Of a stretch of 64,000 nucleotides of DNA, positions 3,601-59,306 are shown one piece after another. Under the pieces are notes generated by a model, which saw only the letters and a list, made by a program, of their open reading frames with translations, was not told where the DNA came from and made no database searches. The stretch is from Bolinopsis microptera (Eukaryota > Ctenophora > Tentaculata > Lobata > Bolinopsidae), in the NCBI RefSeq assembly GCF_026151205.1, contig NC_087080.1, forward strand, positions 7,109,096-7,173,095. The letters run 5' to 3'. Positions within the stretch are counted from its first letter, which is position 1, and each line of letters begins with the position of its first letter. The position numbers were made by a program, and so were the translations under genes.

Positions 3601-6600
3601 CTTATTGCAGTGGTCGATCCTATAAAGTCACTTGACTCAGTTTGAGTTACCTTACTCTTTTACTACAGGAATATAATATGGTTGTATTATATAATTAAAG
3701 GCGCCTAAAATGGAGGTATATGAAATTGAGGCCTTATAAAACTGAACGTCGTGAAACTGAACGTCATAAAACTAAGGGACACGACATGAAATTAAAGTTG
3801 ACCTTAATTATATGAAATTATCTGCATCAGGTTGGCGATCTGAGTTATCATTTAAAAACCTCCTTCAGTATCAGTCATACCGATAAGATCGTGTGTGAAT
3901 CGTTTTAAAATAGAACTAATGATAACTTGCTTGCAAGAACTAAGAACTATACAAGTATGAAATCGCCCAGAACTTCAAAGTCAACGCTTACAAAACAGAG
4001 ACAAGTATGTTATTTACTTAACATCACGTACCGGAAGGATGGCAATGTATCATAAGTTAAATGTACGTTCAGAACAAAATATGAAGAAGTGGAGAATGTT
4101 CCACCTAATTGTTGAAACATAGACCGTACACATCGTACGACTTTGTTGGCGAAGGGCCAGTGGCGGAAGTAATCGAAAGCTTATATCGATCAAATTATTA
4201 AGTATAGCAAATTATTCGTAAATATTTTATCCAGGACAAATGATGACAGAGCAACAGATGTTTGTAAAACTATTGAGAAATCGGTAAGAATAACAATCAG
4301 CAGTCACGACATGGAAAAATTCCGAATTCCAGGCGATCCTTCTAAGTACAGACCATCAAGTTAGGATAAGATGATCGAGTAGAACGTTTTTCAACGTGCG
4401 GTACAAAAACTGGTTATTTTGATGGACTGAAGAATACCCAAGTTTCTTTGTTTGTCTAGAAAGCATTGTTTGTTCAGAAAGCATTCACCGCCAGAATATC
4501 AGGAATGCGCGATCTCCACTACTGGGATCGCCGGGTCTATCTATCTCTGATGTCTCTTCAACGAAGGCGGGAGCGATTCATCATTCTCCATATGTCAATT
4601 GTCAATGATCTGAACGTTCTATTTGTTTCACGCCCAAGGCTTGGAAACCTTGCAGTAATTCCATCAAAACGTAGAACCAGTTCAACAGCAAACCTCACCT
4701 TGTTTGACAACTCATTTGCAGTTCCTGGACCTAAATTGTGGAATGCAATCCCCTACCATCTGAATGTCATTCAAGATCTAGAGCACTTCAAAGATAAGCT
4801 CACAAAGTTCATGTTGTCTCCCTGATAAACCGCTGATCATGGGATATACTCCTCCAAATACGAACTCTCTGCTGTGCTGGCGCAACGAGCGAGATTTTAC
4901 TTCGCTATGGGGTGGTCAGAAGATGTGATGGCCCCGTCAAGTTTTGACGAATCTCAATATAGGTCACATAGGTAGCTTGTAGGTAGGTCTACAACTCACA
5001 TAACTTTCCTTTCTTATTTGCACTAATTATTCATTTTGTTTTTAAAATCATTTCATTGTAATATTTAGGAAATTGGGCTATGCTTACTGATGTATGTGAT
5101 TGATATGGGAGAGGCCGGAAAGAAAAAGACATTCCCAATAATTAATTAAGTTATCTTACCAACGAGTCGTTCAATATTTATAACTAGTTTATAACAAAGT
5201 CTGCATGCTGCACTACCGGTTTTTTGCCCATTATAAGACTTACCCAGTATAAGACTTACCCGGTTGCTCGAGAGAGATGACGATCGCTGGCGCCCCACTG
5301 GGGTAGTAACACGTTCCGGTGCCGTCAGGGAGCAGAGTGAGAAATACTGTACCGTTACGATAATATCTGAAATATTTACTGGTTGATAAGTGCAGGGAGC
5401 AGAGTGAGAAATACTGTACCGTTGCGATAATATCTGAAATATTGACTGGTTGATAAGTGCTGAAATGTTAACTGCTTGATAAGTAGTCTAGTGGATTCGT
5501 ATAATGTTATTGAGTCTCAGGATTTGATGTTTTTCTGAATAGACTCAGTGAAGACAGATTCTAAGGGAAATAAGAAGCTAAACAACATATCGAAATTTCT
5601 ACGTCATACTCATATTCTCGATAAATGTTATAGAGATTGGCTGATTTGTGGTGCTGTAATTAGTTTAATTGATAAGTGCTGAAATGTTAACTGGTTGATA
5701 AGTGCTGAAATGTCGGCTGACTGATAATATTGAAATACTAATTTGTTGATAAATCTGAAAGAGTGAAATGCTGACAGGTTGATTGAGGCTGACTGTGAGA
5801 TGCTGACTGTGAGTGCAACTTATTGATAACATTCGATAATTTGATTGGTTAATAAATCTGAAATGTTGACAAGATCTGTCATCTGTTCATTGACGTTGGT
5901 TGGCATGAAAAAAATGACCGTTGATCTGGCATAATTCAAACATAGATAGTATTAGCTCCTTTACTTATTTAGTGAGTTTTCCAGCGCTTTTAGTTGCACC
6001 CGGTCACAGCACCTAGTCTTTTGGGGTGAGGAGAAAGAAGATGTCCGACAAGAAACGTAAGTATACAAGATGCAACTCTAGCTCCGGGATCATCATCTAA
6101 TCGTACTCAGTAATAATTTATACTGATCATGTCAAAATGTTGATAATTGCTGTGATATTATATCTTGATAGCTGATACAGTTTATTAACTTAAAGTAATA
6201 AGTATATTTCGTGATCTTATAAGGATCAACTAAGTAAGTCTTTAACAAGGACTCCTGGTTATCAGAGCGATAATTAGTAGACACGTGACCAACTCAAGCC
6301 TATCCCAACCTTTAACTTTAACCCTTAAACCCTTACCTTATAGGCTGATAATATTTAAAATACTGATTGATAATGATAATTTCAGTTCAGTAATTATACT
6401 TTTCAATACGTTGTTGCTCGCTTATCTGTTAACTATCACTACGTTGATAAGACGTGCTTGTTTTACCGGTGGCGTGGTTTTGTGATGTATAAATCGGACA
6501 AATACAAGGCTTATAAGCTTGATGAAGTGAGAGATGATGGAGCTGAATGGATCCGGAGAACTCTTGGTAAACCCCCTTACAATAACTCAGTATTTTATAA

Positions 6601-11000: not shown

Positions 11001-14000
11001 GTGAGGAGGAAAAAGATGTCCGACAAGAAACGTAAGTTTACAGAATGCAACTCCGGGGACCGGGATCACCATCGCTTCGTACTAAAGATTTTCGCCAAGG
11101 CGAAAATACAAATTTATTTCGAATCGATTTAATCCCTTTACTTTTTGTTAATCGATAGAATAGGTTATAAGATACCTCTTTGGAAATTCTTTTCACGGTT
11201 GTTTTAACCCGTCTAACCCTATAGTGGTGTCAAGACTCAAGAGACTAAAATAATTATTATCTATTTAATTCGCGTTTTTGACACCACTTGGGGGTCCAAA
11301 TTTTTGGGCACTAAAATTCTTATTCTTTGGCCAATTTTTATTTTTCATGATTGATTTAAAGACCATTAAAGCATTTTAACCAGTCAAAAAAGTTGTATAT
11401 CATTTACGGTTTTCGCGGAAAGTCGTGTTAAATTTGATGCTGTGGTGTCAGTAAAATACTGATATCTGGATATTATCCGGTTGGAAGAGACAAGGACAAG
11501 TGAAACAAGGAAGTTAGGAGTAAGGGCAAATTTTCGGCGTCAACGCCATCTTCAGGCTCAAATTATTTGTTATATAGTAGTGTTGAAAGTATTAAAGTTT
11601 TATGATTCAAGTTTTATGATAAAGTTTTATGATTTGGCAGCATTCTATGTCTACAGGCACAGTGCCGAAGTTCTACAAGACATCAAACATTGCTCCACTT
11701 CACAAGAAAGGCAGTCGTGCTATTGCGGGAAACTACAGACCTGTGTCGTTAACTTCTCATGTCATTAAGATCTATGAGCGAGTTCTACGAAAACAGATGG
11801 TGGCCCACCTCGAAGAAAACAACCTTCTCAATAGCAAACAGCATGGCTTCCGATCGGGGAAAAGTTGTCTCACTCAGCTGCTTCATCATTTTGATGACAT
11901 CATCGAGGCGTTATCAAATGGTGACGACATGGACGCTATATACTTGGATTATGCCAAGGCCTTTGATAAAGTAGATCATCAACTTCTTATCAAAAAACTG
12001 CAGCTATATGGTTTTCATCCCAAAATCATCATCTGGATCGAGTCATTTCTTACAAATAGAACTCAACAAGTTGTTGTAGATGGTCACATGTCTATCATTG
12101 CTCTTATTATGAGTGGTGTCCCCCAAGGAACAGTTTTAGGTCCCATACTGTTTTTAATATTCATTAATGACATTGCTAGCTGCGTGTTGCATTCAACGTT
12201 AAGATGTTTCGCTGACGACACAAGAATTTGCAGATCCATCAGTGATTCACATAATGTTACTGAGCTTCAGTCTGATCTTGACAAAGTCACTGAGTGGTCA
12301 TCAAGAAACAACATGGCACTACATGAGGATAAGTTTGAGTACATATGCCATCTTGCCAACAAACGTAATCCTCTCTATGAGCTTCCTTTTGTCCATGAAC
12401 AGTTCCAATACAGAACATCAACTGGTACTATACTCAGTCCTGTGGATCAGCTCCGTGATCTCGGTATAACAGTATCCAGTGATACGTCCTGGACATCACA
12501 CATACGATCTAGTTGTGATAAAGCGAGGAAGATGGCAGCATGGGTATTCAGTGTCTTCCACTCTCGCAATACTGGTGTTATGTTAACACTATACAAGTCA
12601 CTAGTCCGTAGCCACTTAGAGTATTGCTCTCCTCTGTGGAATCCGGCGAAAGTGTATGAAATTCAGGAGCTTGAAAGTGTACAAAGAACTTTCACTTCAA
12701 AGATCCATGGTTTACAGCATCTCCATTATTGGGATCGCCTAAAAACCCTGTCCCTCATGTCACTTCAGAGGCGCAGAGAACGTTACATTGTCATGCACAT
12801 GTGGAAAATCCTACATGGTTTCACATCCAACGACCTTGAAGTACAGTTCACAGTAAATCCACGATTGGGTACCCTTGCTAAGGTTCCAGCTGTCCGTACA
12901 AAAAGCTCAGCTGCTCACCAGACTCTATATGAAACATCATTTGGTGTAATGGGTCCCAGACTCTGGAACTGTATACCTTCGCACATACGTGCAGTCTCCA
13001 AACATGATGGCTTCAAGCATCATATGACGGCATTCATGCTTTCCTTGCCGGATAAACCGCCAATCCGGGGCTTCACATCACCGAACTCCAATTCTATACT
13101 GGACTGGCGTAACGATCGAGAGGCATCTTCTCTCTGGGGTGGTCAGCAACTCTGATGGCCTGTCGAGTTTCGACGAAGCAGATCAAAGGTATCAAAGGTA
13201 AGGTAATACTTTCAACACTACTATATAACAAATAATTTGAGCCTGAAGATGGCGTTGACGCCGAAAATTTGCCCTTACTCCTAACTTCCTTGTTTCACTT
13301 GTCCTTGTCTCTTCCAACCGGATAATATCCAGATATCAGTATTTCAATCATGAGACTAATAAACAGCGAACTACTCCGTTATTTGATATGTCAGTAAAAT
13401 TGAAAGTATTAAAGTTTTAATACTTTCAACACTACTATATAACAAATAATTTGAGCCTGAAGATGGCGTTGACGCCGAAAATTTGCCCTTACTCCTAACT
13501 TCCTTGTTTCACTTGTCCTTGTCTCTTCCAACCGGATAATATCCAGATATCAGTATTTCAATCATGAGACTAATAAACAGCGAACTACTCCGTTATTTGA
13601 TATGTCAGTAAAATGGTTCGGATATATAAACATATATATCGTGTCGCTTTATATATAGTAAGATATAGTAAGATTGAGCGACCCATCCAGAGGTTGAAGG
13701 CGAATATTTGTGTTTGCTAAGAACTGAACCGTGAAATAATTGACAATTGTACCATATTATGCTATTGAATTATTTCAAACAAATCGCTCCTTGAATGAAG
13801 TGAGTGGTCCTAAACCCAGTAATATTTCAGTAGTATTTGGTAAATGGAAGTACTCTCTCCTACTTCTCGTAGTTAACATTGTCTACATCTACCTTGGTTC
13901 TCTGGTATTCATCTACATTGAGGCAGCAGAGTGGGAAAAAGAGGACATATATCACAAGGAGTATCTGAACCATTTGAAGACCCATATGAAAAAACCTGAT

Positions 14001-17000
14001 GAAGTCCTGCCAAAGCTTCTTGAATTGCAGGTTAGACTTTATAGTTTATTAATTTTAATGCTTTTCAAACAAAGTTACAACGAATTCTTCATGTAGTGCA
14101 TCCTGGGTTATATTAAAATGCACTGTTACAGTCTGTACTATAGCTTGCTTGACGTAACTATCTGCCGTTTTTATCAAGTTACGGGTCTTAGTTTGGAAAT
14201 TATAAATCTTAATGAACTTTTCACCCAGAAAGAGATGTGTGTGAAAGATAACAATCTCAGCGAAGAAGAAAAATGGACTTTTACAGGATCGTTTACGTTC
14301 TGTCTTTCTATTCTCTCTACCATAGGGTACGGTAATTTTATTTCTAAATTCAGCTCAATCTCCAGATACCATTAGGAGACAATCAACCATATATTATATA
14401 ACACTGTATAATGAATTTCAAAAGATTATCGCCAATCACTTCGTTTAGTTTCCACATGTACGGGTTGGCCCAGAATTGAATATTTACCGTCGAAAATTCA
14501 GCGTAATTAACATTACGCTGTAAATACTGCTTAAAACTACAGTATCACGTGATGTTTCCACAAATCTCACATGAAGCCAATACTGGGCCTACATACTTAT
14601 TATCCATATCGTTCTGAATCAATAGACTCCAATTTGTACAATCAAACACCTTACATTCCCACAGGTATGGGGTGATGTCGCCGCATGATACTCTCTCCCG
14701 AGGGGTGACCATGCTCTACGCTCTGTTCGGTCTACCCATCTACGCAGTCTACCTTAATCAGGCGATGAAGGCACTCACTAAGTTCACCTCTGCATTGTCA
14801 CGCCTGGGGCTCTGGTTTTGCAGAAAAAGGAAGGAGGAGGAGGAGGAGAATGATGAGGAGAAGGAGGCGGGAGATGTATCAGATCATAAAACTTTGAACT
14901 GTGCACAATGGGAGGATACAACAGAGTCAATGAACATAAACAAGGGGAGCAAAGATGAAATGCAGCATGACAGCGAGTACAGGAAACTTTCCTCAGAAGA
15001 CTGTCTTGATCATTCCCCACACTTAGGCGAAACCCACAGCCACGAGGACCAGAATACTTTAACAGACTCCCTAGAGAGATTGAGAAATCCCGTCTATGCC
15101 GCAGAAACTACGGTGGAAACTTTATTAAGCAGCGGCAGTGGAAATTCGATCGAAAAGTTGTCCGATGTGATGCCAAGTTTGATGGCGTCAGAGGAAGATG
15201 GTCGAAACTGAACCAATTTCTGTGAACACTTCAACTTGTTCCTTCTACTTACTCAATCTGCTCATTACTTTCCTCCTCCTCATCTCATATTTCTGCATAT
15301 TGCTTATCTGGTGCCCAGTAGATTATGAAAATGAGACCTTGATGGATGAAATATACTGGCTTATGATGAGATTTACAACTATCGGATTTGGGGACGAATA
15401 CCGGGACATCGCGGGGAACCCGGGACTCTTACCAGGGAATGTAAACAATTTGATAGTGTCACTGGTGGTGCTACCTCTGGGTATAGCTATGGCATCTCGT
15501 ATGTTCTACTTGTATAGAAAGATAGCTGCAGAGAGGATCAGGCGAGCCAAGGATAGTACCGGCAAAGGGATCCGGGTCAAATTCCAGTGCGAATGTATAT
15601 ATACCAAATAGTTAAGCGATCTATAAATCTTGGACCTGTTGACACGTGGCAGTGATTCTGGGTTCGATTGGTCAATTCTGGAAGCTGATTAGTTAATCCC
15701 TGTCATGTGATTGGTCAATTCTGGAAGCTGATTAGTTAATCGCAGTCACGTGTCAGGACTATATAATGGTTCACCTCCCAGTCCCCGTCAGTGTACAGAT
15801 TGATTAATCCGTGGTTTCATAAACCGTCATTTTTATTGATCTATTTTTTGTTAATCCTAGTTCAGAAAATATGTGTTTGTCCCAATAAAGTTGTCGTTTA
15901 TTTACAGACACATTCGGAAATATTAATCAACTCAATGCATACCAATTAAATTAAACTAATATGACAATTTCTCTATTGATGAACTAATATTAAGTAACTC
16001 ACAACTGAATAGAGTAGTAGCACCACCCCCTCCTCTAGGAGGAGGTCCTCCCAGAGGCCTGACTTTCTCCAGCTCTCTTTCTCGTACCCTGAGATAAAGA
16101 CATGTTTCTGGTTTCAACAGGTCGTCAGCAGGGACAAAAGGAAATCGCGGCATGTACGGAATCGCGATTTTTCTCATTATTTGCGACAAATTTAATGTAT
16201 AGTTTAATATACCGCGAAATGTAATTCGCGGTATCGCGATTTTTGGCCAAAATAATCGCGAAATCCTTTTGTCCCTGGTCGTCAGAGTGGTTTAATTATG
16301 TTAAAATTTCTCATGTTCTTCGAAAGTTCATGGTAATGTGAACAATGGTTTGATGAAGACTGAAGAATGATAAAATTTGTTATAGATGAGAAGATGATTT
16401 GATATCAGTTTGTGCAGAAGCGACCAACTTAAATGTTACTTGCAAGAAAAACTGTTATCACTTTCCGATCTCCATCAGTAGTCAAGTCTTTAAGTATAAC
16501 ATGAATGCGTGGTCAAACTTTAAAATAATTTGTACAACTTAAGCATGTTACATTCATGGCGAGTTAGCTTCATATGCATATGCCAGAATAACTCGGTAAA
16601 TTGAAGATAGTAAGAGAAGATCAGCGTAAATAAAAGTTTATCAATTAAGAAGACATGCAAAACTATAAAATAAGGAATTCAGAGTTTTGAGTCAGTAAAT
16701 AACATCAGAAACTCAGGGTAACGTTAAAGAGCTATTATTCAAACTTCAAAGATAAAAAAGACACAAATCTAAGATTTAGAAGAAAAAGACACACAAAAAT
16801 TAGATACAGAAATTAGTACACAGATAACAGCGACACACGTAATCAGGTTAATTAAGTAATCATCATTTTCGGATTGAAATATTTCGATTGTTTGAATCCT
16901 TTACGTTTTTGTCCAATCCTGGAGCCTTTTAGCATCATGCCAACACAAATAGTGGCGATTGTCATCCAATGTCATTCTACAGTTGCATTGTACCTATAAC

Positions 17001-19680: not shown

Positions 19681-20750
19681 ATGAACACAACCAATTCTCC
19701 AACTCCACCCTACCTGGGATCAGCAACACAGCAGAGCGGTTCACCTGGGCTACATGGCTCATGGCAGTGTTCCTGGCTTCACTTATAGGGGACACCACCA
19801 TACTAATCGCTTCAATCAAGTACCAGGCCTTCAAACTTCATCCTGTTATCGTGATATTTATACAGCACATTGCAGTCTGTGATCTTATCATGTCGCTGGT
19901 GGTCGTGATGACTCAAAGCGTTTCTTTGATAGCTGGTAAATGGGTCTTTGGACCAGGAGTTTGTTATGTGAGACCCTACATCAGTTTCTACTGCACTGCA
20001 TTAAGCTTGCTACTGATATGTGCTATGACTGTGATTAAACTGATTATCGTGAAGAACCCTCAGAAATCTAAATGTTGGTCGGGAAAACATGCCCACACAC
20101 TTTGTGCGGTACTATGGACTTTGTCACTTTATGCTCCAGCAACATTCCTTCTGATAGATAGCGGAGATGTTCATTATGATAACAGATTGTACACCTGCTT
20201 CTATACCTTCACATCTACTGAGTGGAACTTGCTGAGACCCATTAGTTTGATAATATTCTCCCTAATACCTACCCTCATCACCATCACAGCGTCAGCTCTA
20301 TTGATAAAACACTTGTTGTTCGCTAGAAAAGTAGCCCGACTCTCACAAAGCCATGCTCCCTGGCAGGGTATCGTTACAGTGGTTCTCACAGCTGCAGTTT
20401 ACTGCCTGTCTTTCCTGCCTATTTCTGCCTATTTAGTGGTGAAACCCTTAGTGAAGGACGAACTGTCACGTGTTTATATCTCCAGAGTTACAGATACTTT
20501 GAAGTATCTTAATGTTGTGGCGAATATCTTCATATACACTCTTACTGTCGGGAGTTTTAGGGCCTTCTTAAGAACAAGAATGCAGATGGCAGCTGTCTTT
20601 ATTTCGCGTTTCTTCTCTAAAAATGGTGAGGAATCTTATTTATTTCATGGTCCATATTGGACATTACATTTCTTAAATGAGACGATCTGCTCAAATAACA
20701 TGCAGTTTAATGCAATTCGGTGTTTTAGTAATCATTTCTACATATCATAA
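19681..20750 (+). CDS. Rhodopsin-like orphan 7TM receptor
   Basis: The frame from 19761 to 20750 codes seven hydrophobic helices with class A landmarks. There is a cysteine at the top of helix 3 (GPGVCYVRP) and another in extracellular loop 2 (LYTCFYTF). Helix 6 has a CLSFLPISAY segment, and helix 7 has NVVANIFIYTL in place of NPxxY. The helix 3 DRY motif is replaced by VIKLIIVKNP. In the 19761 frame the first ATG is already inside helix 1. The open frame continues upstream without ATG and includes NTAERFTW and N-x-S/T sites. An ATG at 19681 with an MNTTNS start lies in another frame, so a one-base indel in sequence or genome would restore an ordinary N-terminus. The ligand cannot be inferred. 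A GTGAGG donor-like site after helix 8 could remove the last residues. Confidence 0.75.
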
Positions 20751-29144: not shown

Positions 29145-31637
29145 CTAGACGGACAGATTCAGTACAATGGTAAAATAGTTGCAGCGAGAATACTCCTGGA
29201 TAGTGGAGCAAACACATCTCTCATCAGTGCTGAATTGCTTCCTGAACTAGAAGATAAAATTAAAGATGGGGGCTCTATTAATGGGATTGGTGGTAAGCAG
29301 AAAACAGGGGACCCAGTGCAGTGTGATGTGATGTTTCACTCGGGATGGACCCAGACTCACTGGATGAAACCTACATTCTTACCCGCCCAGCCGGACTTGG
29401 TTATCCTTGGTATGGACTTTATGCAGAAGTTTGGGAAGACCGGATTTGATTGGGAAAAGGGTTGCGTTAAGCTGGGCGAACAGTGGGTATACTGCCTACT
29501 CAGCGAGGACAAACAACCTACATACAACATCAACCCGGAGCTTTCTAATGAAGAAGTAGGTAATCTTAAAAACGTGGTAGATGAATTCAAAAATGTTTTT
29601 GCATCTAACCCCAAAGCCCCTCGCAAATACAAGGGTCCTCAACACTATATTGTAAGTGAAACTAATAGAGTTAGCTTTGATAAGCCCAGGAGAGTCCCTG
29701 AAAAATGGATGGGACACATCAACCGCCAAATTGACGAAATGTTAGAGAATGGGATCATTGAACCGTCTGCATCGCCATACAACAGCAATGTAATCATAGT
29801 TGATAAAAAGGATGGGGATAAACGCTTTGTAATTGATTATCGTTCATTAAATAAGGGCACTATTAAAGACTCGTATCCTTTACCTAACATAGACGAGCTT
29901 ATAGACAAATGCCAAGGCGCAAAATACTTTACGCAACTTGACCTTGCGGCTGGTTACTGGTGTGTGCCTATCGCTGAAGAAGATAGACATAAAACAGCAT
30001 TTAGCGTGCCGCGTGGTAAATACCAATGTTTAAGAATGGCATTCGGACTCAAAAACTCAGGTCCTACTTTTCAGAGGAATATGGATGCTATTGTGAAGAG
30101 TGCTAAGAAGAACATGACTAAGGAGCAGACTCAAGATGGTTCTGGATTGGACGATTACTCTGACAACCTGATATTATTCTCCAGGAATCTGGAAGATCAT
30201 GTGAGTATGCTTAAGATCGTCATGAATGAATTGAGGAAAATGAACATGTCACTCAGAGTTGACAAATGCGAATTTGGCTACACTAAGATTGACTTCTTGG
30301 GATTTGTTATTGACGGAGTTAGTGTGGGTCCTTCTGAAGCTAATATAGATAAAGTCAAGCAGTTCCCTAAACCTAAAAACAAGAAAGAAATCCGGAACAA
30401 GATAATGAGATGGTTAAATGAACTCGAGGCTGTTGAGTATGAAGTTAGGTACATCCCTGGAGAATTGAATGGAGTAGCTGACAGTCTGAGCAGAATTGTG
30501 GTAAAGACTGACATTAAAACGGAAAGAAGCGATGCAGAAGCAGAAAGTCACATTTATGCTGAGTTGAGTAAAGATGGAGAGAATGACAGCTCATTGAAAA
30601 ATGCCCAAGAAAACGATGCCTGGATTAAGTGGACTACATCTAGAATACAGAGCAACAAGGTTATCTCTAGAGGACCTTATAAAAACACTAAATATCTAAG
30701 TGTTGACAGCTCAGGGCTGTTGTATAAGGGAAGACGTATTGTAGTGCCACCAAGCCTTCAAGATAAAATAATTCAGGAATACCACTGCCAAAGCCATCCC
30801 GGGCCAGAGATAACCGCAACCCAAATCAGGGCTAGGTTTTGGTGGAGAAGTTTATCTAAACAGGTAGATGCGTTCACCAAAGACTGTAGAACCTGTATTC
30901 AAGCCAAGAGTAGACCTGATAAGGCTGAAATGATAATCACTGATGTCCCTAAACCCCATGAGATGATTTCCTTTGATATAGGCTCAATGCCTAAATCGCC
31001 CAAAGGTAATTGTTGTTTCATACTGTGTGTCGACTTATGTACCAAGATGATAAACGCTACGGCTTTGCCCAATCAGACATCTAAGGTCCTCAAAGAAGTA
31101 TTTTGGGAGAAACATATTGCCTATTATGGAGTACCTAAGATTCTAGTCTCTGACCAAGGCCCTAATGTAGACAAATCAGCCATCAAAGAACTGTGTGATG
31201 AGCTTGGTATCGAGAAGCGCCACTCAAGCCCATACCACCCACAGGGGAATGGATCGGCTGAAAGATCAATTCAAACCGTTAAAGACAGACTGCGTGCTAT
31301 GATAATAGCTAGGCAGATACCTGTAACAGATTGGGATACCCTTCTTCCAGAAGCTGTGTTAGAGATGAACAGTCAAATGAACAAGTCGCTTAAGGCGTCA
31401 CCATTCTCATGTACTTTTGGTAAAGATGCTAGACTAGCAGTTGATAATTTCTTCCAACTACCAAGTATTACCAATGAGCTCAGTCAAGAAGAGATCTTAG
31501 TAGCAGCTAATCACAATCGGGACATGGCCAAGAAAGCATACAAGATTCAACATGACAAGAATGCCTCAAAGGAGAGTAAGGAGTGGAAGCAAGGAGACCG
31601 AGTGCTAATAAAGCGTACACATGGTAAACTTAATTAA
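29145..31637 (+). CDS. Retrotransposon Pol: protease, reverse transcriptase, integrase (defective)
   Basis: Open from the codon after the gag UGA. The aspartic protease motif LLDSGANTSLIS is at about 29195-29230. Reverse transcriptase follows, with VIDYRSLNK, FTQLDLAAGYW and AFGLKNSGPTFQR. The catalytic box reads YSDN instead of the usual Y-x-D-D. After PKPKNKKEIR the frame jumps to the end of an RNase H domain (YIPGELNGVADSLSRI), so about 250 residues appear to be missing. Integrase has the H-x3-H and C-x2-C zinc motif and the D, D, E catalytic positions (FDIGSM, VSDQGPN, GNGSAERS). The frame then ends inside an inserted LINE fragment. Pol normally copies and integrates the element; this copy should be inactive. 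Confidence 0.88.
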   Translation, partial: LDGQIQYNGKIVAARILLDSGANTSLISAELLPELEDKIKDGGSINGIGGKQKTGDPVQCDVMFHSGWTQTHWMKPTFLPAQPDLVILGMDFMQKFGKTGFDWEKGCVKLGEQWVYCLLSEDKQPTYNINPELSNEEVGNLKNVVDEFKNVFASNPKAPRKYKGPQHYIVSETNRVSFDKPRRVPEKWMGHINRQIDEMLENGIIEPSASPYNSNVIIVDKKDGDKRFVIDYRSLNKGTIKDSYPLPNIDELIDKCQGAKYFTQLDLAAGYWCVPIAEEDRHKTAFSVPRGKYQCLRMAFGLKNSGPTFQRNMDAIVKSAKKNMTKEQTQDGSGLDDYSDNLILFSRNLEDHVSMLKIVMNELRKMNMSLRVDKCEFGYTKIDFLGFVIDGVSVGPSEANIDKVKQFPKPKNKKEIRNKIMRWLNELEAVEYEVRYIPGELNGVADSLSRIVVKTDIKTERSDAEAESHIYAELSKDGENDSSLKNAQENDAWIKWTTSRIQSNKVISRGPYKNTKYLSVDSSGLLYKGRRIVVPPSLQDKIIQEYHCQSHPGPEITATQIRARFWWRSLSKQVDAFTKDCRTCIQAKSRPDKAEMIITDVPKPHEMISFDIGSMPKSPKGNCCFILCVDLCTKMINATALPNQTSKVLKEVFWEKHIAYYGVPKILVSDQGPNVDKSAIKELCDELGIEKRHSSPYHPQGNGSAERSIQTVKDRLRAMIIARQIPVTDWDTLLPEAVLEMNSQMNKSLKASPFSCTFGKDARLAVDNFFQLPSITNELSQEEILVAANHNRDMAKKAYKIQHDKNASKESKEWKQGDRVLIKRTHGKLN

Positions 31638-33253: not shown

Positions 33254-33457
33254 GTGTTAACTTCTTAATATTGTAGTCACCACTTGCAGTCCAAATTTAC
33301 ATTCATTGCTAGAATTCATTACTTCAAACAAGTTTCCAACAATCTTTCCAGGTTCTCCCTCGCACCTTTTTGAGACCAAATCCTGTGTGCAAGAATAATT
33401 AAGAATTTTCAGGACTTCACCCTCAAAACCTTAATGGATTTATCAATTGTTATGTTT

Positions 33458-33522
33458 ACTGGGCTGCGCTCAGCCTGTCATTCCGCCGAATGAATGAACA
33501 TAATAGCCTGAGGTCCCCAGGT
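33458..33522 (+). mobile_element. Very short GC-rich element, copy 1 (65 bp, 13-bp TSD)
   Basis: Starts ACTGGGCTGCGCTCAGCC, contains TGTCATTCCGCC, ends GAGGTCCCCAGGT. It is flanked by the exact 13-bp direct repeat AATTGTTATGTTT (33445-33457 and 33523-33535). This is the cleanest copy of a family seen at least five times in the window. Confidence 0.85.
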
Positions 33523-33705
33523 AATTGTTATGTTTGCTTGAGAAATAAGGACTTTATAAATACACTTTTATTAACCGTAGTTGGTAGTATTGATTAAAAG
33601 TAGTTTTGGGTTGTCGAACTGTTTGTGCGGGCAAAATCATAAAACATATTAAAAAAGATTGTTTTTATTTTAAAATGATTTTTAATAGCATATCAAAAAA
33701 TATTT

Positions 33706-33781
33706 ACTGGGCGGCGCTCAGCCTGTCATTCCGCCGAATCTTTATTTGGCGTGCTGAACATAATAGCCTGGGCCCCCAGGT
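33706..33781 (+). mobile_element. Very short GC-rich element, copy 2 (76 bp)
   Basis: ACTGGGCGGCGCTCAGCC start, TGTCATTCCGCC block, GGGCCCCCAGGT end. Flanked by AAAAAATATTT and AAAAAATATGT, a near-perfect 11-bp duplication. Confidence 0.8.
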
Positions 33782-33807
33782 AAAAAATATGTGCTTTATT
33801 TATTTTT

Positions 33808-33893
33808 ACCTGAGGACCCCAGTGCAGGCTATTATGTTTATTAACATAATAGAATAAAGATTTGGCGGAATGACAGGCTGAGCGCGGCCCAGT
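33808..33893 (-). mobile_element. Very short GC-rich element, copy 3 (inverted)
   Basis: Reverse orientation: ACCTGAGGACCCCAGT at the left, GGCGGAATGACAGGCTGAGC and CCAGT at the right. The flanks share a TATTTATTT word. It sits 26 bp from copy 2, head to tail-inverted. Confidence 0.78.
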
Positions 33894-34600
33894 AATATTT
33901 ATTTACGTCATTGTACTGCAAGCGCACTTGTTCACATTAAGCGCAATTAGAGCTTCAGTTAAAAACAAGGTAAAAATTGTCATACGTTGTATGACCCGCC
34001 GCGCACGAGTGCGCGGCTCCCGGCCCTGTATCGTTGAAACTCTACAGGGGTACTGTAGTGAAACGACAGTGTGGGTCACCACGTGATACAAGGTAAAAGC
34101 AGCCACGGCCACAAATTATTGCACATGACATAAGATTTTAATAAAATTTAGCAAATCCATGGATTTGCATTCGTGGATTTGCATTCTATTTGATTGACGA
34201 TGTCAATCCGTCGAGATCGTTGCTCTGCGAAGCAAGAATGCTAGTTCGCGCGGCGCGTCGAAGCGGCGAAGTCCTCCAACATTCTATGCACGAATATTTA
34301 ATATTTTGGTGGTTACACTTTTTTAAAAAGGTGTTCAAAATTAAATTTGGTATTTTGCGCGCACTTTATGTTTTGTATTTTAATTATTCCATGTCTGCAT
34401 CAGTCAGAAGCAATTTTTCCCAAATATAGGATTAATTTAAATGTATTTATTACAATTATAGTAATAATTATTTTAAAATAAAACTTAAATTTTAGGCGTG
34501 CCGCGCATATTTTCGTCAATTTATAATACATAATATAATTTTTCATATCAAGTATAATATAATTTTAATAACTTGGAAATATTGTTATAGACAACAACCA
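33894..34600. other. Non-coding stretch with octamer-like palindrome
   Basis: AT-rich flanks around a GC-rich block at 33990-34110. At 34152-34190 there is a GCAAATCCATGGATTTGC palindrome followed by a second GGATTTGCATT. ATTTGCAT is the POU octamer. No RNA gene was recognised downstream. Confidence 0.4.
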
Positions 34601-34601
34601 A

Positions 34602-34783
34602 ACCTATTATCTTTGCTTTGTTAGGTTTACTGGGCGGCGCTCAGCCTATCATTCCGCCAAATCTCTATTCGGAACATAAATATAATATAATAGCTTACCT
34701 GAGGACCCCAGGCTTTAATATTGTTAGGCGGAATGACAGGCTGAGCGCCGCCCAGTAAACCTAACAAAGCAAAGATAATAGGT
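34602..34783. mobile_element. Large palindrome made of two inverted short elements plus flank
   Basis: About 57 bp at 34602-34658 is repeated in inverse complement at 34727-34783 with about one mismatch. The arms include not only the element end (ACTGGGCGGCGCTCAGCC) but also 27 bp of neighbouring sequence (TTATCTTTGCTTTGTTAGG). An inverted element end (ACCTGAGGACCCCAG) lies inside. Shared flank in inverse orientation is not explained by simple insertion. Confidence 0.8.
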
Positions 34784-35954
34784 AAATAATAGCCTGGGCT
34801 GGGTCCCCATGTAATGAAAGGTCAGTTCTTAAATTGATAACCATTATAATTAACCAACCCCAGTTTAACAAATCTGATTACTTTTGTCTGCCCAGGAAAC
34901 CTTACTGGCTGGAGCCTAACTTTGAAAGTAAAAGAGATAGCGTCTTCCGGTTTTTTGCAAAATGTTCGTTTCGCAAAAATAACGTTTCCCCCCAGGGGGA
35001 AAATTGAAAACAACGTAGATTTTGAATTATCGCAAAAAGTCATATTTTAGGCCTTATAAAACTGCGTAGCTTTAACTTTGCAGATTGTTGTTCTCTGATT
35101 GGCTGAATCGTATCACGTGGTACGCGGTACAATTGCATTCTTGGAATATTTGAAGCGTGCAAATGCAATGAACTAGCGAGCGCGCGCGGAGTTCAACATG
35201 CTGTGAAAAGGCGATCACCCTGTAGTAATATCGCTAGCCAGTAAGGATTGCTGGGTGCACTGACAAGCTGTTAATGTGCTGTTACGAGCGTACTAAATCA
35301 CTTTACACATTACAGTCGATTTCGAGATTTTTCTGAAAGGGCCCCCGAGTCTTGTGTGTATCGAGTCGAGTGTATTATCATCCGTACAACTTAGGGCCCC
35401 GCAGACCCCGCTATGCGGGAGGCGCCGTACAAGGGGGGCGCAATTTTCCTGAATTTTAGGCCCTATCACTGAAAAAACGTTTGTGTATTTCCCTGTCCAA
35501 TTTAGCGTTCGGTCGACGCGAAAAAAATATTTGGGGTACCCTTTTTTGCTTCAGGGGGCGCAAAAAGCCTTAGGGGGGGGGGGGGGGGGCGAGAAAAAAG
35601 TACCCGACCTTTTTTTTTTTTTTTTTTAAACTTTTTTTAGGGACACAAAAAATTTTTGGGGGGCGCTTTTTGTCACTGAGCGGGGGGGGCGCCAACAGGC
35701 AAAGTTACGCCACTGCATCCGTACTGTTATTTTTGTTTTTACTTTTCGTTTAATTGTGTATATTGCATCGCATAATTAATGCCAAATAAACGAATGAAAA
35801 GACATGTTTAAATGCATTGATGATTGATAAATAAATGTCAAAACTGAAATTATCGTCGGTTGTTAAATTAATGAAATAGCCATACTGACGCGATTCCTAA
35901 TAACAATGTCCATCCCACAGAAATGTTTCTGAATTCTGATTAGCAATAATATCC
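34784..35954. other. Intergenic stretch with G-rich repeat
   Basis: Contains CCAAT-like CTGATTGGCTGAAT near 35094 next to CACGTGG, and a G-rich low-complexity repeat at 35390-35720 with runs of G and T and the GCGCCAACAGGCAA block shared with 27770. No gene seen. The 3' end of the ShKT gene follows. Confidence 0.4.
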
Positions 35955-47900: not shown

Positions 47901-50900
47901 GTTGAATATTGGGTTGACGGGGGAGCTAGGTTACATTGAATTAGAAGGTGTTATTGTTTGGTTCTAGAAGGTTCAGAGACAAAACTTGTTAGGTAGTTTA
48001 GTAGTTTAGTAGTGTAATTAGCGATTCCTGATGGAAACTCAGAGAGTGGTTACCGTGGTAACACGTTAAATCTGAGGAAATACGATTACATTTTTTTAAA
48101 TAACCCCATGAAAGAATTAATGTTCAGTTATTGATGAGTTTCTATCACAAATCATTACAAGCTTTAAAAATTAATGACAGCATATGGTGAGTCATCATTG
48201 ACTTAACAATATTGAATAATTGTTTATTACTTATTGACTAATTATTGACTAATTATCGAGTTTTTAACAGGTCGACCCGGTACATCTCTCCAAAGGTTAG
48301 ACGAAGCAAAGGCAGCTTCCAAAAAATCCCCATACACAAAAGAAGAAGTTCCTAAAGTCGAGTCGGAGAAACTCCTTGCTTCTCCTAAGGAGACTACACC
48401 CAGATCTGTGAGTATACAACTACGTGACGTCACTCTTCACGTGTCATGACGTCACTCTTCACGTGTCATGACGTCACTCTTCACGTGTCATGACGTCACA
48501 CTCCATGTGTCATGACGTCACATCCCACTTATGTTGAGTGTTTACGTTGTAATTCTACAGAGTAAGAAACCAGTGGAGTTACCAGAGAAGGAAAAAGCGA
48601 TTTTAAAAGACTGGTTACAGAAAGCCTCTGTCACAGGTACTGATATTTTCAAAGTATCTCAGATCTGTGTTTTCTTGTGTTCAAATTCTGTTTTCTTGTG
48701 CTCTACATTCTTTTGCTCTGCATTCTTGTGCTCTGAATTCCAGTATAATGTATTCCAGTGTAATGTATTCCTGTGTAATGTATTCTTGTGTAATGTATTC
48801 CTATGTAATGTATTCCTGTGTAATGTATTCCTGTGTAATGTATTCCTGTGTAATGTATTCGTGTGTTTTGTTTGTCACACGTATATTGAGGGACTATATA
48901 GGTGAATTAATCAGTCCGAGTCTTTTTGCTATATTACAACTAAGTAATTTTCTCTAGTATATCGAAAACAACGTGGCTATATTTCTATATTTCTATACCA
49001 ATTTACTGTATTATTAATAAACTACGATATTTCGAAATCTGTTGAGTCACGAGAAGTAGCTGTCTGAAATGAACAGCTTACTTTATGTTATAAGTTAACT
49101 TTGATGGAGTAGATCGTGGTCGGGGCGGCTGACTTTAAACGGAGAGGATTTTATTTTTATTGTTACTCGCTGAGTCAAAACCAAAATGGGAGGCTGTTTT
49201 GACTTTTGAATTCTGCTTGTTATTAGGAGGTCTGCACCATAATTATAAAGTTTTAAGTTCCGTTCAAGGAAGATCGGAAAACACTTTGTTGTTTTGACAT
49301 TATGTTAGTCGCGAACAGAATAAATTCAATAATAGTTGTGAATATCATAGATAGTTCGCATATCAGATAGAAAAAATGCTTGGTTCTGAGGAACACATAA
49401 CAGACTGAACACCATGATCACCGCTATTGGTATTACTAATAAATAGCAACTTATCGAGGACGGGAATTTTGTGCGTATTACTCCCAAAACTCAAAACCCA
49501 ATAACTATCGTCTGATAATGTGATTATTGTGTGTTTATAAACCCGGGTATTTGAAGGAGACCTCACATTCGAACATTTTGTTAACCATGTTGTACTTCTC
49601 AACTCTTCTCGCTATACTCGGACTACTCCTCGCTGCAGATTCATCTGTCGACTAGCCTGGACAAAGACTGGTAGAAAGACGCTACAGGGGATTAAAGTTT
49701 GGAGCGTCAAACCAGGACTATGTTCTCTTCAAGCCAAGAATGGAACCAGTACAGGAATCTTACTCGCTGTGCGGATGGGTAAAGAAGATACAGTCTGGTG
49801 ATGCTTGCTGGTTTGCTTACGGAACATCTAGTGATACCAATGAGATTACCTCAGCAGATAACGGATATTTCCTCACGTTGAGCACCTATGTAGATACAAG
49901 GAGCAAAGTAACTGACCAGCTAGGAACATGGAGACATGTGTGCTACACGTGGAGTCTCACTACTAGAGCAGCTAGTGTGTACTATGATGGGTTACTTCTC
50001 AGATCAAGCACAACCCCCTCTGGTAAGAAGCTTGGTTTAGACGGGTATATTGTACTGGGCAATGAGTTTGATACATATGGAGGAGGATTTGATGATGCTT
50101 TTGGTGGTGAACTGTTCAAGGTCAACATGTTTGACAAAGAACTGAGTGCTGCTGAAGTGAAAGAGATGACGGACGGTGGTCTCTGTTCCGAAGTAGAAGA
50201 GAAATATGGACGAAGTAGGTATCTGAAATGGGAAGACATGCTTCTTGGGGAGAAATCAGGAGATGTCACTGAGATCGATGTAGGCTGCACCCCTGAACCA
50301 AAAGAGAAAGATGAAGTGGTAGAAACCAACAGTACAGAGGACTGTGAATGTGAGCAGGGGAACGGAACAACATTCAGCCGCTGGGACCTGCTACGAGGAG
50401 AAAAGTTCTTCAACAAGACGGTCTCCGTGGAGTTAGTGGAGGAACTGAAACAGACATGGGACGTTCTTGGTAAGTTTTTAAATGTTTCAGTAGATTTATG
50501 TTTTTATGGGATGCACTGACTACATACATTTTTACAGAATTATTATATTTACACTTGTCTTCTAAGTTAAGCACACCCACAGGAGATTTTGAAGGTGCAA
50601 CAGTGACAGAAAGGTTTATTTCTCACTTCAAGTTTTTTCACGACGGGCAAACTTGCAGCTGATTGGACTGGATACTCTACAGTGTGTAACATGTAACTGC
50701 GATCGTAACTGTAAAGACGTACGAGAGTCTAACCTTTATTATCCGTTATTATCCGTTATCTGCTTTCTTTGTGAATTTCTTGTTGTCGCTTTAGGTAAAA
50801 AATTAACTTGCGGCACAAAGTTTGCGAACTTTTGCAACCTAATCCGAGATAGAGAAACTGTGTCGTTATATTTGTGATTAAGATTTTGTAAGGAATATGA

Positions 50901-58500: not shown

Positions 58501-59306
58501 TATCATATTCCATACCACCTGGGGACCCCAGTCTTTACTGTTTATAAGGATGCAGATATGGCGGAGTGACAGACCGAGCGCCGCCCAGTTAATATAATTC
58601 CATATTGAATTTGAAAATCGTGTATATTTCTATGTAACCATATGTTTTTGCTTACAATTTCTTAAATTACAGATAAAAATTAAGTTATACGGCAATTGAA
58701 TTCAATCACAAGTGTTTCCCTATTTAAAACATAATGTTCATATTATGAAGTGAGCTGATTAGGCCCTAGAGCTTGTAGTTGAAGTGAATGGAAATCTAGT
58801 GTCCGCCACAACAAAACAACGGGCGCAATTCTTGTTGTAATTTTGGGGAATGCCTTAGTGGATTTTGGAAATCCCTCATAATAGAGTCCCCCATAATACC
58901 CCAAAGTACTCGAAAAATACCCCTTGGCTTCCCCCCCCCCCCCCCCTATCTCCAGGACAACTGGATTTATAGTCGATGTTATAAACTCTAGTTCTGTCTG
59001 AGAAGAGCTCAGAAGAATTGTTTTAGGGGGGCGCTTAAAAGCGATATCTTTGTACGACATAAGTTTTTTTCTGTACTATAAAGCTGAAATAATTCAGCTA
59101 AAAGCAGGCTCACGCCGTATAAAGTACAAATTTTGTGACCATGTAAATGACCACACATTGTAAAAACACAGTGCTTACAGTTTTTATTTCAGAAAAGAGA
59201 CGTACGGTCCTTGGTGCCGAACAACACTTCAAGCTTCATCAACCCAAACAAAGACCGGGGAAGTCACTTTGACATTCACCCTGACTGGCCAAGTTACTAT
59301 AATTAG
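52517..59306 (+). CDS. C-terminal exons of the host gene, or a separate gene
   Basis: Exons about 52517-52756, 53075-53177 and 59193-59306 join in phase and end in TAG. Text includes NLPFSEKQIAEKFLDELEV, GFGPLMDRSRDLGYRDGKTD, KPFATSPRYAPHFGP and a closing SHFDIHPDWPSYYN. No family was recognised; it is soluble, without signal or membrane segments. The previous gene piece ends at 52020 in phase 1, while this first exon needs phase 2. So either an exon is hidden in 52021-52516, a base is wrong, or translation starts at the ATG at 52542. Composition and orientation favour one gene. The 6-kb last intron holds the TGTGACAAAG repeat field, a small secreted-protein gene on the other strand, and LINE remnants. 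Confidence 0.6.
53530..55400. repeat. Repeat field built on TGTGACAAAGTAAAC
   Basis: The word TGTGACAAA(G/A)T(T/A)AAC or close variants appears well over a dozen times. Within it, a unit of about 305 bp is tandemly repeated at roughly 53955-54270, 54277-54575 and, partly, from 54580. Stop-rich in all frames and intronic. Confidence 0.8.
55725..56669 (-). CDS. Small secreted protein of unknown family, two exons
   Basis: Exon 1 runs 56669-56597 and exon 2 56041-55725; they join in phase 1 to 390 nt (129 residues plus TAA). Exon 1 is a strong signal peptide (MRFRNFLLILLVTLLLSGV). The mature part has two cysteines (near its start in PSCQKF and near its end in QPFECSS), many aromatic residues and a FPGQWDITFQESG...YRFWFYPDEGAFYWD pattern. 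This suggests a small beta-sandwich or barrel, but no family was recognised. An upstream ATG at 56759 is in frame but would bury the signal peptide. The gene lies antisense within an intron of the 52517-59306 gene. Confidence 0.72.
56209..56480 (-). repeat. Inverted copy of the repeat at 11218-11452
   Basis: Begins CTGACACCACGGCATCAAAT and later has TTTGGACCCCCAAGTGGTGTC and AGTCTTGACACC, the complements of blocks at 11218-11452. It includes an internal A run and lies in the intron of the small secreted-protein gene. Confidence 0.65.
56770..57840. other. Intron sequence with repeated blocks
   Basis: Blocks resembling ATTACAGCACTTTATAAT...TCTCGGCTTCTGA occur near 57070, 57250 and, inverted, near 58300. 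A CGCTCGATCGACCGAGCG palindrome is at 57290. No gene seen. Confidence 0.4.
57845..58030. repeat. Threefold repeat of GCTACCACGTCTCGTGTAAC
   Basis: Three imperfect tandem units, each with CGCTCACA(G/T)GCTACCA...CGTCTCGTGTAAC, joined by CCAGGATTT. Confidence 0.75.
58065..58352 (-). pseudogene. LINE reverse-transcriptase fragment
   Basis: A minus-strand frame contains YFADDTRVSIS and VIKWSERNNMALHKDKFEV, matching the catalytic and following region of the reverse transcriptase at 11629-13155 (FADDTRICRSIS, EWSSRNNMALHEDKFEY). Truncated on both sides. Confidence 0.8.
58517..58589 (-). mobile_element. Very short GC-rich element, distant copy
   Basis: ACCTGGGGACCCCAGT at the left and GCGGAGTGACAGACCGAGCG with CCGCCCAGT at the right: an inverted copy of the family clustered at 33.4-34.8 kb. 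The flanks share ATTCCATA words. Confidence 0.75.

What the first reader, a model, noticed from the sequence alone, without database searches (positions are those of the whole stretch)
33458..33893. A family of 65-90 bp GC-rich elements with 9-13 bp target duplications
At least five copies share ACTGGGCGGCGCTCAGCC, TGTCATTCCGCC and a G-C-rich end reading ...CCCCAGGT. Copy 1 is only 65 bp and has an exact 13-bp flanking duplication, so it moved as a unit. The length is far below ordinary SINEs. The duplication length suggests LINE-type or other target-primed insertion rather than a cut-and-paste MITE. There is no A tail or tRNA-like promoter. I know of no described family of this form.
Basis: partly seen in the sequence, partly recalled or inferred. 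Interest (0 to 1): 0.75.

Follow-up and report, generated by a model that had tools for sequence, protein, structure and literature searches.

The report
Tiny cut-and-paste transposons (MITE family)
These short repeats (mostly 64-104 bases) are miniature, gene-free DNA transposons that insert with an 8- or 9-base target duplication and probably borrow another transposon's enzyme; they look like a very small member of an ordinary kind, not a new sort of retroelement.

Summary
The repeats are real and mobile, but not a new target-primed retroelement. The window holds six copies; the genome has 988 exact left and 912 exact right 18-mers. Directly outside lies a duplication of 8 or 9 bp: exact in 51 of 89 copies (8 bp 29, 9 bp 20, 7 bp 2), with one mismatch in 17 (8 bp 13, 9 bp 4), not seen in 21; none is 10 bp or longer. 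The ends are imperfect inverted repeats, and empty sites carry one target copy. This is a miniature inverted-repeat transposable element (MITE). A 341-373 bp sibling shares both ends. No autonomous partner was found. A Mutator-like transposase is favoured but unproven: Mutator-like elements of this genome also leave 8 or 9 bp. A Penelope-like element with matching ends proved to be a nested insertion. Unusual: copies down to 65 bp with a perfect duplication, palindromic ends, and a hypervariable middle (49 different middles in 56 copies).

The parts
33456..33524 (+). Copy 1, 69 bp, TTACTGGGCTGC...CCCCAGGTAA
33447..33455 (.). Left 9-bp target duplication TTGTTATGT of copy 1
33525..33533 (.). 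Right 9-bp target duplication TTGTTATGT of copy 1
33704..33783 (+). Copy 2, 80 bp; flanked by AAAATAT (7 bp, in an A run, so possibly 8)
   Evidence: duplication 33697-33703 and 33784-33790
33806..33895 (-). Copy 3, 90 bp; flanked by 9 bp TATTTATTT (+ strand)
   Evidence: duplication 33797-33805 and 33896-33904
34627..34814 (+). Copy 4, interrupted: left part 34627-34694, right end about 34783-34814; flanks TGTTAGGT / TGAAAGGT (6 of 8 alike, by eye)
   Evidence: the automatic pairing gave this copy a wrong right end and no duplication
34695..34758 (-). Copy 5, 64 bp, inside copy 4 and followed by an inverted 24-bp copy (34759-34782) of copy 4's own left flank (34603-34626): a local inverted duplication, no target duplication of its own
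   Evidence: flank read by eye
58515..58591 (-). Copy 6, decayed, about 77 bp; possible old duplication TATGGAAT displaced by 5 bp on one side (by eye)

Best explanation
A family of very short non-autonomous DNA transposons (MITEs). A transposase made elsewhere recognises the two palindromic, inverted-repeat ends (TTAC-TGGGC... and TTACCTGGGG...), excises the element and joins it to a target cut with an 8- or 9-base stagger, whose repair gives the duplication. Shown: the termini, the 8/9-bp duplication, the inverted ends, empty sites with a single target copy, and a longer sibling with the same ends. Inferred: the cut-and-paste step and the transposase. A Mutator-like transposase is my preferred supplier (about 0.55 given that it is a DNA transposon), because Mutator-like elements leave 8 or 9 bp both in this genome and in a mosquito. 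The central part of the short element has no visible role and is unstable.
For: 988 exact left 18-mers (482/506 on the two strands) and 912 exact right 18-mers in the genome, reversed-pattern controls 0. In 89 copies: TT 82, AA 80; duplications exact 8 bp 29, 9 bp 20, 7 bp 2; one mismatch 8 bp 13, 9 bp 4; none seen 21; flanks shuffled among copies give about 0.3 exact and 0.3 one-mismatch per 89. Ends align as inverted repeats over about 26 bp, 0.0175 of 2000 shuffles as good. Of 68 joined-flank queries 17 have spanning hits; by eye five are clean empty sites (L065, L126, L134, and L142 and L031 with one mismatch in the target). A 341-373 bp sibling has the same ends. Four of eight Mutator-like loci read here show their own inverted repeats with 8- or 9-bp duplications; two with similar ends, L090 and L093, have 8 and 9. 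Mosquito Muta1: duplications of 8 or 9 bp and a palindromic terminal motif (PMC5225508).
Against: No element carrying a transposase between these ends was found: eight Mutator-like and six Merlin loci lack the pair of ends within the flanks read, and 20 of 43 unpaired long-sibling left ends lead to no transposase domain. Mutator-like TIRs do not resemble the family ends beyond chance (best 0.079 of shuffles). The inverted repeat is short and imperfect. 21 of 89 copies show no duplication, among them one mispaired copy (copy 4 of the window). The sample is enriched for well-kept ends, and four pairs of loci are duplicated genomic sites rather than independent insertions.
Confidence: 0.87

Rival explanations
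1. Same kind of element (MITE), but mobilised by a Merlin, hAT or other transposase with an 8-9 bp stagger rather than a Mutator-like one.
For: Merlin (58 matches) and hAT (150 matches scored of 366 candidates) transposases are also in this genome. Merlin duplications are 8-9 bp (recalled, no call). No shared termini tie the family to Mutator-like elements.
Against: hAT duplications are 8 bp (recalled), while 24 of the 68 visible duplications here are 9 bp. The six Merlin loci read do not have the family ends around the transposase within the flanks read, and no clear 8-9 bp Merlin duplications were established there. The P-type search was empty but so were its controls, so P is untested.
Confidence: 0.38
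2. One reading: a target-primed (LINE-type) short retroposon of 65-90 bp.
For: Dispersed short GC-rich units with duplications; some target duplications begin with A.
Against: Duplication length 7-9 bp only in 68 of 68 visible cases; inverted-repeat ends; no A tail; no Rfam match in the window. Of 18 loci chosen by the right end alone, 16 show a left end or its remnant within the stretch read (by eye; L052 and L067 do not), so there is no graded 5' truncation.
Confidence: 0.04
3. A non-autonomous partner of a Penelope-like retroelement: L049 is a 6.07-kb unit with exact family ends and a perfect 9-bp duplication that holds a reverse-transcriptase-like frame.
For: L049: family ends and GATATAAGG on both sides, long frames inside.
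Against: Of 14 loci with this retroelement or its relative, 13 lack the ends and one (L075) has an ordinary short copy nearby. In L049 the retroelement is a truncated copy, 98-100% identical to the others, lying between the two halves of an ordinary short copy.
Confidence: 0.01

Closest known systems
Non-autonomous derivatives of the Mutator-like element Muta1, Aedes aegypti (PMC5225508; passages and section 7)
   Same: Target duplications of 8 bp or 9 bp; a palindromic terminal motif; many non-coding derivatives sharing only the ends.
   Different: Muta1 has 145-bp TIRs with subterminal tandem repeats and a known 3.2-kb autonomous copy; here the TIR is about 26 bp and imperfect, elements are 64-104 bp, and no autonomous copy was found. 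The terminal sequences were not compared.
CMITEs of Acropora corals (PMC2872659; first quarter of the text, passages)
   Same: Very small MITEs (about 100 bp) in an animal genome, high copy number, partner transposon mostly not recognisable by sequence.
   Different: CMITEs have TTAA duplications (piggyBac type) and a conserved middle with variable ends; here the duplication is 8-9 bp, the ends are conserved and the middle varies.
SINEs (described in PMC8969392, passages)
   Same: Short, dispersed, non-coding, with target duplications.
   Different: SINEs are given as 80-500 nt with a Pol III promoter and LINE machinery, and LINE duplications vary in length; here ends are inverted repeats and the duplication is 8 or 9 bp.

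Membership tests
MITE (non-autonomous TIR DNA transposon) | Short, non-coding, multi-copy | tested here: met
   82 of 89 copies are 58-104 bp; about 1,000 exact ends of each kind
MITE (non-autonomous TIR DNA transposon) | Terminal inverted repeats | tested here: met
   TTAC(C)TGGG ends, imperfect over about 26 bp, 0.0175 of shuffles
MITE (non-autonomous TIR DNA transposon) | Target duplication of characteristic length | tested here: met
   8 or 9 bp in 66 of 68 visible cases, 7 in two
MITE (non-autonomous TIR DNA transposon) | Ends shared with an autonomous transposon | tested here: inconclusive
   a 341-373 bp non-coding sibling only; no coding partner found in what was read
Mutator-like elements (MULE) | 8-10 bp target duplication | tested here: met
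   definition in PMC5225508
Mutator-like elements (MULE) | Long TIRs (over 100 bp; typical, not universal: 2 of 14 mosquito families under 60 bp) | tested here: not met
   about 26 bp, imperfect
Mutator-like elements (MULE) | Ends shared with a MULE transposase gene | tested here: inconclusive
   8 loci of 88 MULE matches read, none with the pair of ends within the flanks read
hAT | 8-bp duplication only (recalled) | tested here: not met
   24 of 68 visible duplications are 9 bp
Merlin | 8-9 bp duplication (recalled) and ends shared with an IS1016-type transposase | tested here: inconclusive
   length fits; 6 loci of 58 matches read, none with the pair of ends within the flanks read
SINE / target-primed retroposon | Variable-length duplications | tested here: not met
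SINE / target-primed retroposon | Origin in a tRNA, 5S or other small RNA | tested here: not met
   no Rfam family reaches its gathering score in the window
Penelope-like element derivative | Ends shared with complete Penelope-like copies | tested here: not met

The most novel reading that the evidence does not exclude
The middle is remade at each round of transposition: a copy consists of two conserved palindromic ends joined through a new junction each time (by abortive gap repair or template switching between hairpins), so the heritable unit is the pair of ends rather than a fixed sequence. The 49 different middles in 56 copies with nearly uniform ends are compatible with this; so is ordinary slippage after insertion, which the duplicated sites L001/L009 and L063/L064 show does happen.
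Probability: 0.1. Interest if true: 0.6.

Novelty: new member of a known kind. Interest (0 to 1): 0.25.

Why it matters
It replaces a claimed new retroelement class by a defined MITE family. Copies of 65-69 bp with perfect duplications show how little DNA a transposase with an 8-9 bp stagger may need between two palindromic ends, and the hypervariable middle offers a way to ask how small palindromic elements lose and gain sequence.

Tried and rejected
Penelope-like origin: L049 looked decisive (same ends, perfect 9-bp duplication, reverse-transcriptase-like frame), but other copies of that retroelement lack the ends and in L049 it is nested in a short copy.

Autonomous partner: pairing the 100 left and 100 right ends listed for C1 gave no coding element bounded by the ends. 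L049, L085, L086 and L083/L084 hold copies interrupted by or next to other repeats; L087 has a sibling-type left end and a right end 1.2 kb apart without a matching duplication. All 74 left-internal and 46 right-internal exact sites of the long sibling were paired: 31 of 74 pair within 12 kb, 28 of them within 366 bp, three at 1.2, 1.4 and 11 kb. Twenty of the 43 unpaired left sites were read about 2.4 kb inward; frames of 120 codons or more were listed and ten of these frames, leaving out the plainly low-complexity ones, were compared with Pfam: no transposase domain. Some of these 20 are complete siblings whose right marker is mutated (for example L149, L150, L152, L154, L156). A transposase split into short exons would be missed. 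Positions of MULE, Merlin and hAT matches were compared by eye with the listed ends: none seen inside an element. The P-type search was empty, but so were its controls, so it says nothing.

Hairpin function: DNA and RNA folds of four window copies gave z about -2 to -2.5 in three and -0.4 to -0.5 in the fourth. In 56 copies the palindrome pairs of the right end change on one side only (G-T, A-C), with a single reversed C-G to G-C pair. So I do not claim an RNA or single-strand hairpin function.

Mutator-like TIRs as source of the ends: seven end sequences compared with both family ends, best 0.079 of shuffles; not significant.

Literature: three exact sequence pieces searched inside words gave two papers (listing only; by title unrelated). 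Searches on very small MITEs, sea-anemone MITEs, 8-9 bp superfamilies and variable middles (listings) showed no description of this family. Most subscription papers and all repeat libraries were out of reach.

Full report
What is there. The window holds six copies of the described repeat and one fragment: five in 33456-34814 and one at about 58515-58591. The genome in which it lies (264.65 Mb in 232 contigs, unnamed; a cnidarian is my guess from gene content, not tested) has 988 exact copies of the left 18-mer (482 forward, 506 reverse) and 912 of the right 18-mer, with none for the reversed patterns. In the first 23.4 Mb of contig C1, 100 left and 100 right exact ends were listed; 26 same-strand pairs lie 67-102 bp apart and five at 190-371 bp. 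If the two ends decay independently this implies roughly 320 copies there and 3,000-4,000 in the genome, a rough figure of mine.

True ends and duplication. Of 40 sites chosen only by the left 18-mer, 38 have TT before ACTGGG and 2 have AT. I then collected by script every place in all held sequence with both ends: 89 copies. TT starts 82 of 89 and AA ends 80 of 89. Outside these, the duplication is exact at 8 bp in 29, 9 bp in 20 and 7 bp in 2; with one mismatch at 8 bp in 13 and 9 bp in 4; not seen in 21. None is 10 bp or longer, although up to 15 bp was allowed. Pairing left and right flanks of different copies gives about 0.3 exact matches per 89. The sample is not random. By origin: 39 copies from 60 left-18-mer loci, 13 from 18 right-18-mer loci, 21 from 20 loci picked from the top of the DNA search with a window query (20 of these 21 exact), 6 in the window, 10 from other loci. 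In the other 21 of the 60 left-18-mer loci no right end was found in the stretch read; six of them are the long sibling, others are interrupted, decayed or an older relative. In the right-end sample 8 of 13 are exact and 1 has a mismatch. Four pairs of loci (L001/L009, L002/L008, L042/L048, L063/L064) are duplicated genomic sites, not independent insertions, and window copy 4 was mispaired by the script and counts among the 21.

Anatomy. 65 short copies with clean ends give an 82-bp consensus; their first 20 bases differ from the consensus by 2.9% on average and the last 20 by 4.6% (selected for clean ends). The left end and the reverse complement of the right end align over about 26 bp (0.0175 of 2000 shuffles as good). 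Each end is itself palindromic (CTGGGC-GGC-GCTCAG; CCTGGGG-T-CCCCAGG). At position 10, 28 of 56 copies have G, 26 C and 2 T, which suggests two main subtypes. The middle is strikingly variable: 49 different middles in 56 copies, total length 65-100 bp in that set. Duplicated copies of one insertion (L001/L009 and L063/L064) differ by several small insertions or deletions in the middle, while most of their flanks align with single-base changes and a few gaps, so at least part of the variation arises after insertion. The duplicated target has no strong base preference.

Mobility. Joining the flanks of 68 copies with one duplication copy and searching held sequence gave spanning hits for 17; many of these are gapped, weak or self-matches. 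By eye five are clean empty sites with the target present once: L065 (inside the long sibling), L126, L134, and, each with one mismatch in the target, L142 (inside another family member) and L031. The element therefore inserts as a unit, also into its own kind. The shortest copies with an exact duplication are 65, 68 and 69 bp.

The longer sibling and the missing partner. Elements of 341-373 bp share about the first 40 and last 40 bases; five of the 89 are of this kind, two of them duplicates of one site. Its internal left marker occurs 74 times and its right marker 46 times in the genome. Of the 74, 31 have a right marker within 12 kb, 28 of them within 366 bp; the three wider ones contain other repeats, among them L086, 1.46 kb with an 8-bp duplication CTATTTTT read by eye. 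Twenty of the 43 unpaired sites were read 2.4 kb inward without finding a transposase domain. MULE (88 matches), Merlin (58) and hAT (150 scored of 366 candidates) transposases are present. Eight MULE and six Merlin loci were read; in none does a pair of family ends enclose the transposase within the 1.5-2.5 kb of flank read. Four of the eight MULE loci show their own inverted repeats with duplications of 8, 9, 8 and 9 bp, and L090 (8) and L093 (9) have similar ends. That, and Muta1 of Aedes (8 or 9 bp and a palindromic terminal motif; PMC5225508), is why I favour a Mutator-like supplier at about 0.55. Membership is not claimed: the inverted repeat is short and no shared end was found.

A false lead told in full. 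L049 is a 6.07-kb unit with exact family ends and the 9-bp duplication GATATAAGG and holds long frames that I read as a Penelope-like reverse transcriptase (recalled motifs; Pfam gave no such hit). A complete related frame in L070 has a GIY-YIG domain near its start. But of 14 fetched loci with this retroelement or a relative, including four with an uninterrupted 924-codon frame (L069, L070, L071, L074) and three with 932 codons (L080-L082), 13 have no such ends and one (L075) has an ordinary short copy nearby. In L049 the retroelement is a truncated copy, 98-100% identical to the others, between the halves of a short copy.

Verdict. An ordinary mechanism (cut-and-paste MITE) in an unusually small element with palindromic ends and an unstable middle.

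Noticed in passing
L069-L074, L080-L082 (G000 C9, C7, C10, C8, C5, C1): Two families of Penelope-like retroelements (my reading) about 50% alike in protein, with many near-identical copies and long open frames (924 and 932 codons), an N-terminal GIY-YIG domain in one (PF01541, L070), many 5'-truncated copies and tandem arrays (three copies in L071)..
   Followed up: partly
L090, L091, L092, L093: Mutator-like elements of 1.6-3.3 kb with clear inverted repeats and 8- or 9-bp duplications, both lengths among two with similar ends.
   Followed up: partly
window 34603-34814: Copy 4 contains copy 5 plus an inverted 24-bp copy of copy 4's own left flank: a local inverted duplication, perhaps from template switching at the hairpins.
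   Followed up: partly
L008, about 180-300 in element orientation: A different insert of roughly 110-120 bp (begins TTTGCTCTAACC) sits inside a family copy between two AGCCTGGGG stretches, so another small element with a 9-bp duplication may exist; the same start recurs beside L051 and L055 (by eye).
   Followed up: no
L014, L015, L020, L035, L036; L046, L047: An older relative: TTACTGGGCGGCGCTCAGCCTGTGCC...CCCAGTTAA, in inverted pairs next to a (ATGGTTATGAC)n-like satellite.
   Followed up: no
window 33960-34260: A GC-rich repeat (GACCCGCCGCGCACGAGTGCGCGGCTCC and neighbours) that also occurs in L031, L044 and L065 and serves as a target of the family.
   Followed up: no
window 2020-3447 (-), 11629-13155, 15198-15611, 19761-20750, 29235-31637, 49740-50519: Pfam matches: MFS transporter, reverse transcriptase, ion channel, rhodopsin-type receptor, retroelement pol with reverse transcriptase and integrase, pentaxin/laminin-G.
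   Followed up: no
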